Shown: positions 1-5,966 of the stretch, piece by piece
Position numbering within the stretch: the first letter of the stretch is position 1
How the letters are laid out: each line of letters begins with the position of its first letter
Made by a program: the position numbers and the translations under genes
Assembly: GCA_034717985.1 (NCBI GenBank)
Contig: JAYEMH010000035.1
Location: forward strand, 25,380-31,345
Origin: JAYEMH01 sp034717985 [NCBI: Candidatus Ratteibacteria bacterium]
GTDB lineage: Bacteria; CAZDME01; JAYEMH01
Length of the DNA: 5,966 nucleotides
Direction of reading: 5' to 3'
The notes under the pieces: model-generated
What the model was told of the DNA's origin: nothing
The model's database searches: none
The model's input: the letters and a program-made list of their open reading frames with translations, nothing else

Positions 1-985
1 ACCGGTGTCCGAAAAAAATTTCTTTAAAGAATATTTTTAAATTAGGCGCCGGGATATGTAAAAAAGTCCGGCGCCTGAGCATATCGCACTTCCGACAGGA
101 CTCAAATTCGGCTATTTCTCTTTCTTGCATTTTCTTCCGCAACTTACTATATACGCTACTACGCCATATAGCTCCAATGGAAGAATTCCTTAAATTTCCC
201 ATGATAAGCTGGCCAAAAAAATCTTGTGGGCAAGGGGATATATCGCCATTCCAGAGAATCACCATAGCATACCAGGGAAAGGTGCAGGCAGAAAACTTCG
301 CCCCGTTAGAACTAATGGGGTAACTCCCGGCCCAATTATGCGGCGATTTTACCACGAATTTATTCAAATGTAAAGAATAAAGCTTTTCCCTCAATGCCTC
401 TCTGGCACTTAGGTAATCCCCTGTTTTAACCTCGCTAAGTTCCATCGTTTCAAAAACCGTAAAGGGTTTAACCTTTCGGAGCTTCTCTTTAAGTTTCAAG
501 AAGTTTTCAATATGATTAATGGTAGTTTCGAAATTAGCCCCGCGGCGAATTTTCTCGTAAGTCTCTGCGATAAAACCGTCAAATGAAAAGGAAAGAAAAT
601 CCAATTCCGCTTCAAGGATTGCCCGGGCCTTCTCTTCATCAAGAATTGTCGCATTGGTATGAAGGCGGGTGTAAAGGCCTGCTTTCCCGGCATAATCAAT
701 CATCCGGGACAATTCCGGATGCAATAAAGATTCTCCCCGATGATGTAAATTTACGTCATAGACGAAATTTTTAGCTTCATCAATTATCTTTTTGAAAAGT
801 TCGAATTTCATAAACCCTCGTTTGATGGAACCGGATTCACTCTGCGGACACATAACACAGCGTAAATTACAAGTACTGCTCAGTTCAATCCAGAGCCGAA
901 TAGGCAAATAATTCAACTTTTCCTTCTTGCGCCAATAACTGGCGGCAATCTGTAATAATCGTTTAGTTCGCTGCAATTTATTCAT
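1..985 (-). CDS. Radical SAM/SPASM domain protein, 3' end cut by window edge
   Basis: The frame is open from ATG at 985 to the window edge: 328 codons with no stop, so the C-terminus lies outside. Residues about 31-46 (RLWIELSSTCNLRCVMC) carry the radical SAM CxxxCxxC motif, C39, C43 and C46, which binds the 4Fe-4S cluster that cleaves S-adenosylmethionine. HHRGESLLHP (81-90) is the GGE-like SAM-contact strand, here RGE. The C-terminal part fits a SPASM domain: C234, then NGDISPC (G247, C252), then GNL and IW at about 263-274, then CRKC (C297, C300). These four cysteines could bind one auxiliary cluster. The start is fixed by an in-frame TAA at 994-992, just upstream. The previous gene's stop is 11 bases before the ATG, implying one transcript. 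No good Shine-Dalgarno is visible. SPASM proteins modify peptides, sugars or other substrates; no precursor peptide gene is visible, so the substrate is unknown. A collapsed palindromic repeat lies inside the gene at 301-320. Confidence 0.9.
   Translation of the reverse strand, partial: MNKLQRTKRLLQIAASYWRKKEKLNYLPIRLWIELSSTCNLRCVMCPQSESGSIKRGFMKFELFKKIIDEAKNFVYDVNLHHRGESLLHPELSRMIDYAGKAGLYTRLHTNATILDEEKARAILEAELDFLSFSFDGFIAETYEKIRRGANFETTINHIENFLKLKEKLRKVKPFTVFETMELSEVKTGDYLSAREALREKLYSLHLNKFVVKSPHNWAGSYPISSNGAKFSACTFPWYAMVILWNGDISPCPQDFFGQLIMGNLRNSSIGAIWRSSVYSKLRKKMQEREIAEFESCRKCDMLRRRTFLHIPAPNLKIFFKEIFFGHR
301..320 (-). repeat. Short in-frame palindrome, collapsed copy of the 3567-3630 element
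   Basis: On the plus strand CCCCGTTAG (301-309), a 2-base spacer AA, then CTAATGGGG (312-320) form a 9-bp inverted repeat with one mismatch. The arms match the outer arms of the 64-bp element at 3567-3630: in the coding direction this copy reads TACCCCATTAG followed directly by TTCTAACGGGG. It is read in the same frame as the larger copy and gives residues YPISSNG (222-228) of the SPASM protein. These lie in the stretch between NWAG (217-220) and the first SPASM cysteine C234, which I would expect to be a variable loop. That it belongs to the same family as the long copy is inferred from sequence likeness and shared frame; chance resemblance is less likely but not excluded. Confidence 0.6.
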
Positions 986-2570: not shown

Positions 2571-3506
2571 TTACCTTCTCACTGTATAAACCACCGCGCC
2601 GAAGACGGCAGTTAAAATCACAAACCCGAATGACAGCCAGGCCAGGGCTAAAGCCGGGGCATTAAGCACCCCGTAAGCGCTGAAAAAGAAAACATAAGCG
2701 CTCTCTCTTACCCCGATACCGCTGATAGTTATCGGCAGGGTTAAAATCAAAGAAATCACCGGAATGATTAGAAAATAAAAAATCAGCGGAACCGGAATTC
2801 CCAGGGCAAATCCAATCAGATAGTAATGTAGAACAACTACCACTTGAAGCAGGGTCGCCGTCAAGAGGACCCAACCGATATGTTTGCCTTTGTGGCGGTA
2901 AAGATGCAGGGCTTCATACATTTCTTTAATCCAGTGTCGGAAAAACCTCAAGCCCGGCAGATTAAAGAGCCGGCCGGAAATTCTGGCCAGCGGCGGCCAC
3001 AAGAACAGCAGGAGAAAAAGAGCAATTAAAACAAAAAATAGGGCGCAAATCCATATTAGCGTGGAAGCCTCTTTTACCTCAACCCCGGAAAATAATAAAA
3101 TTGCCGCGGCAATGACCATTAAAACAAAAAGCCCCGAGAGGCGCTCAACAAAGATAACCATAACCGGCTTGATAGCCGTCTTGCTCCAGCGGATGGTATC
3201 ATAAGCCCGGATCATATCCCCCCCGATGCCGGTGGGTAGAAAAGTGGTAAAAAAGGTGCCGACAAAATAAGAACCCAGAAGACGGCGGTAAGGCAGTTCT
3301 ATTCCCTGGGCATCAAGTAGTAATTTCCAGCGGAAGGTGCTGATGGGATAATCAAGCAGATGAACAAAATAAGCTGCTCCCAGCCAGAAAATATTAACCG
3401 ATTTCAAACTCACCCAGACCTGCTGTAAATCCACCTTGTTGACGATAAATAAAACCAGCAGAAGGCTGAATACAAGTTTTCCGACGGATAAAAGGATTTT
3501 TTTCAT
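2571..3506 (-). CDS. Flippase-like membrane protein, LPG-synthase-TM / UPF0104 family, 311 aa
   Basis: Complete integral membrane protein with about eight hydrophobic segments, roughly at residues 7-23, 36-50, 75-93, 112-138, 150-171, 209-233, 240-260 and 285-308. The family motifs are clear: FRWKLLL (58-64), PTGIGGDMIR (91-100), ERLSGL (121-126) and LPITISGIGVRESAYVFFF (257-275). The length is typical of stand-alone members (about 300-330 aa), without the soluble aminoacyl-transfer domain of MprF. Members are implicated in moving or modifying lipids and lipid-linked intermediates in the cytoplasmic membrane; the exact substrate here is unknown. The ATG at 3506 overlaps the TGA of the upstream GT-C-like gene as ATGA, so translation is probably coupled, and a GGTGA lies 7 bases upstream. 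The context suggests it handles the same lipid-linked glycan as its neighbour. Downstream comes a 134-base repeat-bearing spacer without an evident terminator. Confidence 0.92.
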   Translation of the reverse strand: MKKILLSVGKLVFSLLLVLFIVNKVDLQQVWVSLKSVNIFWLGAAYFVHLLDYPISTFRWKLLLDAQGIELPYRRLLGSYFVGTFFTTFLPTGIGGDMIRAYDTIRWSKTAIKPVMVIFVERLSGLFVLMVIAAAILLFSGVEVKEASTLIWICALFFVLIALFLLLFLWPPLARISGRLFNLPGLRFFRHWIKEMYEALHLYRHKGKHIGWVLLTATLLQVVVVLHYYLIGFALGIPVPLIFYFLIIPVISLILTLPITISGIGVRESAYVFFFSAYGVLNAPALALAWLSFGFVILTAVFGAVVYTVRR

Positions 3507-5966
3507 AATTCATTCACCGGTTTAATCTCAATCATATCTACCCAGAGCTTTCCTTGATGGGAATAAACCCCGTTAGAAGTCCCCGCCAGAAGCGGGGCAG
3601 TCGCCTGAGGCGACTTACTTCTAACGGGGTAAACAATTCGGAATTCAAGAATTTGCTCCTTTTTCAATCCAAAAGGAAAGGAAAAGTACTGGTAGATCCC
3701 TTTTTCTTTAAAATCGCTTCCCTTGATTTCTCTTTCAGCCAGTTTATTCCGGCCAAAATTTGTGGTTACCTCCAGCGTCGCCAGGGGAAAATCAGATAAT
3801 TCATCAGTCTTTAAGCGGAATGAAATTTGATAAATTCCTTTAGAAAGCCGGCGGTAAGGCCCGAAAAGAACCTCTTGATGTCGGGTCAAACCGGGGGTGA
3901 AGACAATTGTTTCTTCCGCGGAAGCATCACTATCTTCAGAAAGCAAACCGCGGTAATAAAGATCCTCGGCCTCATAATGATATCGCGGGTCTTCCTGGTC
4001 GGCGAATAAAATGTAAAGGTAATTAACCCAGAGGTTGGCTTTGTTTAAAAATTCTATACGGAATTCGGGAAAAAATGGTTCCTCCGGAACTTGTCCGGCC
4101 TCATCTCTAATAGAAATCCCTGAGGGATTGAATTTAATAACAAAATCCTGGTATTTCCCGGCCTTTTTAAAATCAGTCCCTTTTATTTCCTGCCGGCTAA
4201 TTATATCATGGCCATTATTGGCACAGACATCCAGAATAGCAATGGGCTCACTTATAGTGTTATCATCGGTTTTGAGACGAAATATAAGTTTGTACTCTCC
4301 CCGGGGGAAAACCTGCTGGCGGCCAAAAAGCAGATGTCCCGGCTGGTCTGTTTCAACCGAAGCAAAAAGAGCCTGGCCGTCTTCCGCCGCCGGATCATCA
4401 ATCAACCGGCCGATACGCCGGTGGAACTGCCCGGATAATTTAAGAACCCCGGCCACTGAAATCAACTTAGAATCATCCTCTTTTAAAACAGGCTTATCCC
4501 TCAGTTCGAAAAGCCAGATAAGTTTTTCCCGGGTAACAAATTTAAGATAGGCTGACTGCTTCAGCCGGTTAACCGAATAGATAGAACGGAAATGACTTAC
4601 TTTTAACGGGAAGGCATCTTCGTGCATAACAATATACTTCACCCCGAGTTTCTTTAAAAACTCATATTGGGCCTGGCTGATATCGCCTAAATTCAGGCTG
4701 ATCAGGGGATAAAATATCCTATCGACATATTCCTGGGGCACCAAGGGATAATAGCCGTTAATAATCTTTACCTGCGTCAGCGTAACGTAATAAAGATAAA
4801 TGGATGTCCAGGCCGTATCGCCGGGCCAGAGCGGAAGCTCAAGAACCTTTTTATCGCCGGCGTTTTCCCTTATAATTTCATAAATTCTATTTTTTTTATC
4901 AAAAAGACATATACCCGCGTTAGAATTTGAATGGCAATCAAGAAAAATCCCGAAGCACAAAGAAATGCCAACTATGACTAAAACTGCCTTTTTAAAAACT
5001 TCCTTCCTGATTCGGGAAATAAAAGCAATAATCTCTTTAACTCCGTTTCCGGCCAATACAGACAAGCATAAAAAACTTATTGCGATTATCCGTCCGGGAA
5101 CCCGCGGGTAGTTAAAATAGGGAATGAATTTATAGCAAAAATTATAAAGCGGGAAGAAATCGTTTAAACTCGGCCCCAAAGCCAATATGGCGCTTATCAG
5201 CAGTCCGCCGGCAAAAAAAAGACGGTTAATTTTTTCTTCATACTGGTTTGTACTACTTGCCGAACGGCAGGAACTAAAAATAAACCCCAAAAAAGCCAGG
5301 GCCAAAGAAACCATTCCTAAATAAATATTTTTTTCGGCATCAACATTCCCCCGGCTGAATAAATCTTTGATGCCCGGCGAATAGAGTCTTACTTCCGAAA
5401 GATCCCTCCCTTTCCGGGCAATAGAAACTCCCAATTCAACATTTTTCAAAAAAACAACGAAAAGAAAAACCAGAAGCAAAGATAGAAAAATCGGCGCCCA
5501 GGCTTTCATCAGACGCTTTATCAAATTGAAATTGTCCTCCTTCCATCTGGCCAGGCTGGTAACTGTTTTTATCGGCAGAAACAGCAGGCTAAAGAAACTC
5601 AGATAGTAAAGAAAATGGTACTCTATCAGGGCGAAACTAAAAAGACAGAAGAAATAAAGAAGGGCAAACTTAAGCTCCCCTTCAGAAAAAAGTTTCTCCA
5701 GTGAAAAAACCGCCAGCGGTACTATTCCCCACAGGAAACCGTTGGTATGCCCGCCTAAAAGCTGGGCAAGGGCAAAGGGAGAAGCCGCATAGATTAAACC
5801 GGCAATAAAAGCCGGAAAATCACTTTTAAGGTAAATCCTGGCTAAAAGAAACATTGCCAGCCCCGAAAAGGTCAAGGAAATAATCACCGTCGCGTTATAA
5901 GCAAAAGCTCCCCCAAAAACGGAAAAAATTACAAAAATAATCGAAAGAGGAAGACGCCTGACAGTG
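3503..5966 (-). CDS. GT-C-like integral membrane protein with two tandem C-terminal beta-sandwich domains, 5' end cut by window edge
   Basis: The frame is open to the right edge (820 visible codons); a GTG at 5887 is possible but unlikely as start, because the 26 codons before it encode another hydrophobic segment (LPLSIIFVIFSVFGGAFAYN) typical of the family. Numbering here is from GTG 5887. Residues 1-317 hold about ten membrane segments, with YAASPFALAQLLGGHTNG (33-50) and YPRVPGRIIAISFL (260-273), as in the large GT-C / YfhO / PTPS-related membrane proteins. Next is a soluble region with LELPLWPGDTAW (349-360), INGYYPLVPQEYVDR (376-390) and LKKLGVKYIVMHEDAF (411-426), also typical. Two paralogous beta-rich domains follow (about 480-630 and 636-792), the second opening YEAEDL like CBM6/CBM35-type modules. 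Such proteins use or resemble users of polyprenyl-phosphate sugars and place their soluble parts outside the cytoplasmic membrane. The N-terminal catalytic loop is outside the window, so activity cannot be judged. The TGA overlaps the next gene's ATG. Confidence 0.85.
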   Translation of the reverse strand, partial: TVRRLPLSIIFVIFSVFGGAFAYNATVIISLTFSGLAMFLLARIYLKSDFPAFIAGLIYAASPFALAQLLGGHTNGFLWGIVPLAVFSLEKLFSEGELKFALLYFFCLFSFALIEYHFLYYLSFFSLLFLPIKTVTSLARWKEDNFNLIKRLMKAWAPIFLSLLLVFLFVVFLKNVELGVSIARKGRDLSEVRLYSPGIKDLFSRGNVDAEKNIYLGMVSLALAFLGFIFSSCRSASSTNQYEEKINRLFFAGGLLISAILALGPSLNDFFPLYNFCYKFIPYFNYPRVPGRIIAISFLCLSVLAGNGVKEIIAFISRIRKEVFKKAVLVIVGISLCFGIFLDCHSNSNAGICLFDKKNRIYEIIRENAGDKKVLELPLWPGDTAWTSIYLYYVTLTQVKIINGYYPLVPQEYVDRIFYPLISLNLGDISQAQYEFLKKLGVKYIVMHEDAFPLKVSHFRSIYSVNRLKQSAYLKFVTREKLIWLFELRDKPVLKEDDSKLISVAGVLKLSGQFHRRIGRLIDDPAAEDGQALFASVETDQPGHLLFGRQQVFPRGEYKLIFRLKTDDNTISEPIAILDVCANNGHDIISRQEIKGTDFKKAGKYQDFVIKFNPSGISIRDEAGQVPEEPFFPEFRIEFLNKANLWVNYLYILFADQEDPRYHYEAEDLYYRGLLSEDSDASAEETIVFTPGLTRHQEVLFGPYRRLSKGIYQISFRLKTDELSDFPLATLEVTTNFGRNKLAEREIKGSDFKEKGIYQYFSFPFGLKKEQILEFRIVYPVRSKSPQATAPLLAGTSNGVYSHQGKLWVDMIEIKPVNEL
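3514..3518 (-). promoter_or_regulatory. Shine-Dalgarno-like GGTGA for the flippase-like gene
   Basis: GGTGA reads on the minus strand at 3518-3514, 7 bases before the ATG at 3506. It lies inside the last codons of the upstream gene, whose TGA overlaps the ATG by 4 bases. This supports ATG 3506 as the start and suggests reinitiation by ribosomes finishing the upstream gene. It is the best ribosome-binding site among the starts visible in this window. Confidence 0.5.
3567..3630 (-). repeat. 64-bp palindromic element inserted in frame in a coding gene
   Basis: The outer arms ACCCCGTTAGAAGT (3567-3580) and ACTTCTAACGGGGT (3617-3630) are a perfect 14-bp inverted repeat. Inside are two further hairpins: CCCCGC (3581-3586) with GCGGGG (3592-3597), and AGTCGCC (3599-3605) with GGCGACT (3609-3615). 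The whole could fold as a three-way junction. TAAA occurs at both edges (3564-3567 and 3630-3633), possibly a 4-bp target duplication, though it overlaps the arm ends by one base. The element lies in the 3' part of the GT-C-like gene and is translated without a stop, adding residues 754-775 (counted from GTG 5887), from PVRSKSPQ to LLAGTSNGVY. The paralogous domain earlier in the same protein lacks these residues, which supports an insertion. It is not a terminator, since it lies within a gene and has no T-tract. Confidence 0.85.

What the first reader, a model, noticed from the sequence alone, without database searches (positions are those of the whole stretch)
3567..3630. In-frame palindromic element inside a membrane-protein gene
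Seen: a 64-bp element with perfect 14-bp outer arms and two internal hairpins lies within an open gene and is translated through. The two C-terminal domains of the host protein are paralogs, giving an internal control: domain 1 reads FRIEF-LNKAN-LWVNYLYI, whereas domain 2 reads FRIVY, then about 22 residues from the element, then SHQGK-LWVDMIEI. The insertion therefore falls in a loop between two conserved strands. TAAA at both edges may be a target duplication. Known parallel: Rickettsia palindromic elements insert in frame into genes; this sequence is not one that I recognise.
Basis: partly seen in the sequence, partly recalled or inferred. Interest (0 to 1): 0.72.

Follow-up and report, generated by a model that had tools for sequence, protein, structure and literature searches.

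The report
Gene-invading palindromes with tiny nuclease partner
A 62-base self-complementary DNA element that has jumped in frame into a bacterial membrane-protein gene belongs to a family found in several little-known bacterial phyla, whose longer members, only about 280 bases, carry one small DNA-cutting enzyme that probably moves them all.

Summary
The element is 62 nt (3568-3629) with TAAA duplicated on both sides, so it adds 22 codons in frame; it folds as a 13-bp stem carrying two hairpins. Its arms, with other interiors, occur in genomes labelled Patescibacteria, Planctomycetota, Omnitrophota, Nitrospirae, Elusimicrobia and others (119 stretches, capped scan). 48 of 49 short copies inside long ORFs preserve the frame; 99 of 174 copies have exact 4-bp duplications, all YNNR. 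Solved relatives of three host enzymes lack the inserted 21-23 residues. The inner hairpins covary. New: the same arms also bound elements of about 275-285 nt whose interior is one GIY-YIG nuclease gene, typically 84-94 residues, under purifying selection (median dN/dS 0.18) and co-distributed with the short copies. A GIY-YIG gene with different arms and TAAA flanks, beside a short copy, repeats the pattern. I read the window element as a non-autonomous, MITE-like derivative of a minimal GIY-YIG mobile element. It works like Rickettsia palindromic elements but is not shown to be one. Movement by the nuclease is inferred, not shown. Some copies carry tRNA genes and sit inside other tRNA genes.

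The parts
3564..3567 (.). TAAA, left copy of the 4-bp target duplication
   Evidence: sequence; coordinates; 99 of 99 exact duplications in the family are YNNR
3568..3629 (-). the element proper, 62 nt, translated in frame with the host gene
3568..3580 (.). left arm CCCCGTTAGAAGT (family core CCCCGTTAGAA)
   Evidence: same arms in genome contigs
3581..3597 (.). inner hairpin 1, CCCCGC-CAGAA-GCGGGG
   Evidence: fold, (on the other strand closes one more pair)
3599..3615 (.). inner hairpin 2, AGTCGCC-TGA-GGCGACT
   Evidence: folds; covariation in 65-nt relatives
3617..3629 (.). right arm ACTTCTAACGGGG
3630..3633 (.). TAAA, right copy of the duplication
3503..5965 (-). host gene: membrane protein with two paralogous C-terminal domains (open at the window edge, 820 aa)
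   Evidence: no Pfam match; paralogy

Best explanation
The window element is a short non-autonomous (MITE-like) copy of a palindrome-ended mobile element family. SHOWN by sequence: a family with core ends CCCCGTTAGAA/TTCTAACGGGG and, in more than half of the copies, exact 4-bp YNNR duplications; copies inside long ORFs that almost always make element plus duplication a multiple of three; interiors that keep two hairpins while their sequence changes; and long copies (about 275-285 nt) in which the same ends enclose one single-domain GIY-YIG nuclease gene. INFERRED: the nuclease is the mobility enzyme of long and short copies. It probably cuts a YNNR target with a 4-nt stagger and acts on the extruded hairpin or cruciform of the element, as its relative SLX1 acts on branched DNA; gap repair then leaves the 4-bp duplication. 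Copies that break a gene are lost. Those that survive add about 18-25 tolerated residues, or sit at a start codon, where the element's last base plus the TG of the duplicated TGAA remakes an ATG or GTG.
For: 99 of 174 copies have exact 4-bp duplications, 99 of 99 YNNR. 48 of 49 short copies inside ORFs of 150 aa or more preserve the frame. Solved relatives align flush across the insertion in glutamate dehydrogenase, tRNA-guanine transglycosylase and TrpRS. Inner helices: 15 of 15 pairs with changes on both sides; covariation score 0.314 against 0.111 in shuffles, 0 of 500 as high, slid controls at most 0.177. In most of one genome, 22 of 26 inverted repeats flanked by perfect 4-bp repeats carry this tip. 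Long form: arms at that distance in 31 of 78 genomes, reversed control 0; a GIY-YIG frame in 24 of the 30 places fetched, one per genome (read by eye); Pfam GIY-YIG E 6.9e-19 for the one tested; motif residues invariant in 22 sequences; dN/dS median 0.179 over 101 usable of 406 pairs; of 10 pairs of copies 85-99% identical, 9 have both flanks at most 45% identical. Long and short forms co-occur: 8 of 379 genomes have both, 6 long only, 14 short only, p 8e-8. A GIY-YIG gene with other arms (CCCCACACCTTTT) lies between TAAA copies beside a 49-nt short copy of those arms. The predicted fold is nearest UPF0213 and SLX1.
Against: No step of movement was observed. GIY-YIG relatives without these arms exist: 6 of 8 in genome G004, and among 11 fetched loci that my motif located, 5 lack them, one of these (L290, 140 bits) a near relative, so the gene could be cargo. 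6 of 30 long matches held no GIY-YIG frame. Copies as short as 29 nt are hard to picture moving as double-stranded DNA. 75 of 174 copies lack an exact duplication although 58 of those have YNNR on both sides, and only 11 of 30 GIY-YIG copies have one; simple cut-and-fill does not explain this. The co-occurrence test uses one arm motif for both forms, so it is partly built in. About a fifth of cells in the inner helices do not pair. No long copy could be sought in the window's own genome.
Confidence: 0.7

Rival explanations
1. The palindromes are MITEs moved in trans by a conventional transposase (DDE type or tyrosine RAYT); the GIY-YIG gene is only a frequent cargo.
For: RAYT genes (PF01797) are in 47 of 63 element-positive genomes; 5 of 30 RAYT loci have at least one arm motif nearby; GIY-YIG genes also exist outside such arms; very short copies look like ordinary MITE deletion products.
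Against: 25 of 30 RAYT loci and 18 of 20 wider neighbourhoods have no arm motif; in the wider set one (L193) lies among three copies and one (L207) has a single arm beside it. Three of four RAYT genes of G004 have other hairpins close by. IS1380-type PF13701 is in 4 of 63 genomes and none of the 6 loci fetched has arms. Other transposase families were not searched. Two different arm families both enclose a GIY-YIG gene.
Confidence: 0.2
2. Homing only: the nuclease breaks particular sites and the element is copied in by homologous recombination, as for free-standing homing endonuclease genes.
For: GIY-YIG is a homing-nuclease fold; tRNA-carrying copies sit repeatedly in anticodon-loop regions of other tRNA genes.
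Against: Ordinary copies lie in unrelated genes with only a degenerate 4-bp target in common, and 9 of 10 near-identical pairs have different flanks, so flanking homology is unlikely to have guided them.
Confidence: 0.07
3. RNA-level introns: the stem is a splicing or processing signal and the element is removed from the transcript.
For: Elements in the anticodon-loop region of outer tRNA genes.
Against: Inside long ORFs 48 of 49 preserve the frame, which splicing would not need. Of 68 frame-breaking copies I inspected 23: about half sit at a start codon, the rest upstream of genes, at gene ends or without a clear gene, none clearly inside one. Only 6 of 12 outer tRNA genes are recognisable after joining and trimming.
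Confidence: 0.03

Closest known systems
Rickettsia palindromic elements (RPE)
   Same: palindromic, many copies, in-frame insertion into unrelated protein genes (as described in PMC10969869, passages seen)
   Different: RPEs are described there as about 150 bp and in Rickettsia; here 29-130 nt for most short copies, several other phyla, 4-bp YNNR duplication, and a nuclease-coding long form. No RPE sequence was compared.
MITEs with an autonomous insertion-sequence partner
   Same: terminal inverted repeats, target duplication, short copies sharing the ends of a coding copy
   Different: the coding copy has about 280 nt and encodes a single GIY-YIG domain, no transposase
REP/REPIN palindromes with RAYT (TnpA-REP)
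   Same: hairpins in many copies, some intragenic and translated (PMC3733652, passages seen)
   Different: 4-bp duplication; three of four RAYT genes in G004 have other hairpins; GTAG or CGTC tags were not tested for
Free-standing GIY-YIG homing endonuclease genes; UPF0213 and SLX1 proteins
   Same: GIY-YIG catalytic domain; nearest solved chains are UPF0213 BH0048 and SLX1
   Different: bounded by palindromic ends with short target duplications and accompanied by non-coding derivatives

Membership tests
Rickettsia palindromic elements | in-frame insertion of a palindrome into protein genes | tested here: met
   48 of 49; window
Rickettsia palindromic elements | sequence of a described RPE family, Rickettsia host | not tested
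   no RPE sequence was at hand; hosts listed by the capped scan are bins of other groups; no Rfam match in the window
MITE | terminal inverted repeats with a target duplication of fixed length | tested here: met
   4 bp exact in 99 of 174, all YNNR; window TAAA
MITE | coding partner with the same ends | tested here: met
   GIY-YIG long copies
MITE | that partner encodes a transposase | tested here: not met
   the long copies read hold a GIY-YIG frame only
REP with RAYT | cognate RAYT gene flanked by the same palindrome | tested here: not met
   18 of 20 neighbourhoods without arms, one among three copies, one with a single arm; 25 of 30 loci without arms
Homing endonuclease element | nuclease of a homing family encoded in the element | tested here: met
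   Pfam GIY-YIG; NCBIfam group I intron endonuclease only below its cut-off
Homing endonuclease element | insertion at one cognate site by flanking homology | tested here: not met
   many unrelated sites, 4-bp degenerate target; possible exception tRNA carriers

The most novel reading that the evidence does not exclude
A class of DNA mobile element not described in the paper listings I saw: autonomous units of about 280 bp, among the smallest known, that move with a single structure-specific GIY-YIG nuclease and no transposase, recombinase or reverse transcriptase of their own, spread across several bacterial phyla, amplify hairpin-only derivatives into essential genes in frame, and form tRNA-carrying versions that replace the tRNA gene they destroy.
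Probability: 0.5. Interest if true: 0.93.

Novelty: new variant of a known kind. Interest (0 to 1): 0.8.

Why it matters
If the nuclease moves these elements, a complete mobile element can be one 86-residue domain and two 13-base arms. That would widen what counts as a transposition enzyme and explain 20-odd-residue insertions in enzymes of uncultured phyla. It also makes the old question of how palindromes such as RPEs enter genes in frame directly testable, because here a candidate enzyme and target site are named.

Tried and rejected
IS1380-type transposase (PF13701) as mobiliser: 4 of 63 genomes, no arms around the 6 loci fetched. RAYT (PF01797): 47 of 63 genomes, but 25 of 30 loci and 18 of 20 wider neighbourhoods without arms. 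Splicing of elements from mRNA: rejected by frame preservation and by the positions of frame-breaking copies. Origin of the ~109-nt copies of G004 as deletions of the long form: one match at E 0.005 with arms masked, left open. Empty-site orthologs of the window gene: 2 weak matches in 145 genomes. Rfam: nothing in the window at gathering thresholds. Ten paper searches, each showing at most 20 titles and abstract starts of up to 277 matches, listed none that describes this family or a GIY-YIG element with inverted-repeat ends; most subscription papers are not held, and the preprint library is not.

Full report
WHAT IS IN THE WINDOW. The element proper is 62 nt, 3568-3629, between two copies of TAAA (3564-3567 and 3630-3633). 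With one copy of the duplication it adds 66 nt, 22 codons, to an open frame of 820 aa on the minus strand. On the gene strand it folds as a long stem with an unpaired A, a 7-bp hairpin, an unpaired G and a second hairpin. Such a repeat did not arise in 200 shuffles. The host protein has no Pfam match and its two C-terminal domains are paralogs.

THE FAMILY. In an even draw of 379 genomes of the phylum of G004, 22 have a short copy by the pattern used, and the reversed control pattern has none. The spread is thus wide and patchy. Nearly all these records are metagenome bins, so some taxon labels may be wrong. Because the scan demanded exact arms, arm invariance there is by construction. In genome G004 (a Giovannonibacteria bin, 680,410 bases read) a search without arm sequence found 26 inverted repeats of 12 bp or more bounded by perfect 4-bp repeats (two of them overlapping); 22 carry NCCCGTTAGA, with stems of 13-18 bp and an outermost base that varies together with its partner.

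INSERTION. Of 174 copies (two of L073, part of G004, and one of L005, cut by its contig end, were left out) 99 have identical 4-bp flanks, all YNNR, 89% with T first and A last. Of the other 75, 58 have YNNR on both sides, often CNNG; I cannot explain this class. Of 95 copies of 50-75 nt in the first set, 73 have length plus 4 divisible by three (binomial p 5e-18; lengths are not independent). By a second definition (103 short copies), 49 lie inside ORFs of at least 150 aa and 48 of these preserve the frame, against 30 of the other 54. That ORF criterion favours frame-preserving copies, so flanks of the 68 frame-breaking copies were joined; of 23 inspected, about half sit at a start codon, the rest upstream of genes, at gene ends or without a clear gene. 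In G004, 17 of 34 copies sit at a start codon, 4 in frame inside ORFs, 3 around tRNAs and 10 elsewhere. By the stricter count (ATGAA before, TGA after) there are 16, and in 9 the leader frame opened by the old ATG ends in a TGA that overlaps the new start.

EMPTY SITES. Solved glutamate dehydrogenase aligns to query residues up to 56 (weakly) and from 78, at adjacent chain residues 46 and 45. For tRNA-guanine transglycosylase, query 107 and 131 match chain 114 and 115. For tryptophanyl-tRNA synthetase, query 214 and 238 both meet chain 210. The 21-23 unmatched residues are the element translation; element plus duplication is 23-24 codons.

STRUCTURE. In the 21 copies of exactly 65 nt (none dropped; several fold differently) all 15 inner pairs have changes on both sides; 79% of inner cells pair; the covariation score is 0.314 against 0.111 in shuffles (0 of 500 as high) and at most 0.177 when slid. 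Related sequences inflate such scores, so this is support, not proof. Other copies have little inner structure or almost no interior (29 nt).

THE LONG FORM. One G004 copy of 277 nt encodes 94 residues with a GIY-YIG domain. Arms bounding 265-295 nt or so occur in 31 of 78 element-positive genomes, reversed control 0. Of 30 such places fetched, 24 hold a GIY-YIG frame, by my reading, and 6 do not. Collected by motif over two fetches, 30 distinct copies show 11 exact duplications and 23 with YNNR on both sides; in 16 of 30 the stop codon is the first three bases after the element, and in five the frame runs on into the flank. Where it is present the C-terminal LTG is written by the right arm. 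Twenty-two sequences (three broken or partial frames left out, one G004 copy added) share invariant YTG, R, H and E residues; dN/dS over 101 usable of 406 pairs has median 0.179, maximum 0.312. Of 10 pairs of copies at least 85% identical, 9 have flanks at most 45% identical over 60 nt and one has a right flank 90% identical; L239 and L264, on one contig, are 99% identical. A profile finds relatives at E 1e-10 in 28 of the 30 genomes given to it, but in G004 only the two nearest of eight have these arms, and of 11 fetched loci that my motif located 5 have them, 5 have none (L290 among them, a near relative) and one has others. That one, L303 in G017, reads TAAA, arm CCCCACACCTTTT, GIY-YIG frame, a right arm with one extra base, TAAA, a 49-nt copy with perfect arms, TAAA (the inverted repeat joins the first and last arm). 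Short copies with those arms occur in 3 of 47 genomes. In the 379-genome draw 8 genomes have long and short forms, 6 long only, 14 short only and 351 neither (Fisher p 8e-8); since both patterns use the same arms, this shows co-distribution, not cause. The AlphaFold model (pLDDT 90.6) has one match at E below 0.001, UPF0213 BH0048 (TM 0.53), followed by SLX1 chains, nucleases of branched DNA by the titles of their entries.

MECHANISM. Shown: ends, duplications, frame selection, nuclease gene in the long form, purifying selection. Inferred: the nuclease cuts target and hairpin, and repair inserts the element. That I-TevI, another GIY-YIG nuclease, prefers CNNNG is recalled and comes from no call. 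The tRNA carriers are the strangest part: 16 places in 12 of 78 genomes have a tRNA-like interior by pattern. In all 12 loci read, ARAGORN sees the inner tRNA; in 6 the flanks, with 0-8 bases trimmed on each side, join to something it calls a tRNA, while in others the outer gene is decayed or cut. L114 looks nested three deep, by eye. My guess is an element that carries a replacement for the tRNA gene it hits.

COMPARISON. It works like RPEs and MITEs. I do not call it an RPE: no RPE sequence was compared and the size differs. What sets it apart is a nuclease-only coding partner. The GIY-YIG survey PMC1564403 (passages seen) holds neither 'inverted repeat' nor 'palindrom'.

Noticed in passing
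L213-L224; G004 C1:38269, C1:72191, C3:20952; L114 3449-3555: Elements enclosing complete tRNA genes (Val, Ala, Pro, Thr, Leu by ARAGORN), many of them in the anticodon-loop region of another tRNA gene, often with flanks TTCA and CAAG or their reverse complement; L114 looks nested three deep.
   Followed up: partly
L227, L239, L263, L264 (and L007 3651): GIY-YIG frames, or a short element, run in frame into a downstream sequence that looks like a type IV pilin N-terminus (LTG-FTLIEV; motif recalled), supplying the Gly before the Phe.
   Followed up: no
L303 1488-1795: GIY-YIG element with different arms (CCCCACACCTTTT), TAAA on both sides and a 49-nt short copy directly beside it: a second family of the same build.
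   Followed up: partly
G004 C1:118349, 146986, 166262; C2:89219, 179679: A 109-nt family, four of these five with an open leader frame at a start codon, encodes related peptides (MNPVRNS...LLVKFLTG), with copies differing largely at third codon positions by eye.
   Followed up: partly
window 301-320: CCCCGTTAGAACTAATGGGG, a 20-nt near-palindrome with the family core inside the first radical-SAM gene; perhaps a minimal or decayed copy.
   Followed up: no
window 4594-4610: GACTTACTTTTAACGGG matches 16 of 17 bases of the right half of the element, a possible solo arm in the same host gene.
   Followed up: no
G004 C1:231411, C2:98478, C2:104091: Three of four RAYT genes have their own, different hairpins close by (for example TGTTGAACATTCAATGTTCAACA).
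   Followed up: no
75 copies without exact duplication: 58 of 75 have YNNR on both sides although the two 4-mers differ, with CNNG enriched; no explanation accounts for this.
   Followed up: partly
L120 2297-2354 and 5697-5725: Two copies on one IMG/VR contig, a possible route between hosts.
   Followed up: no
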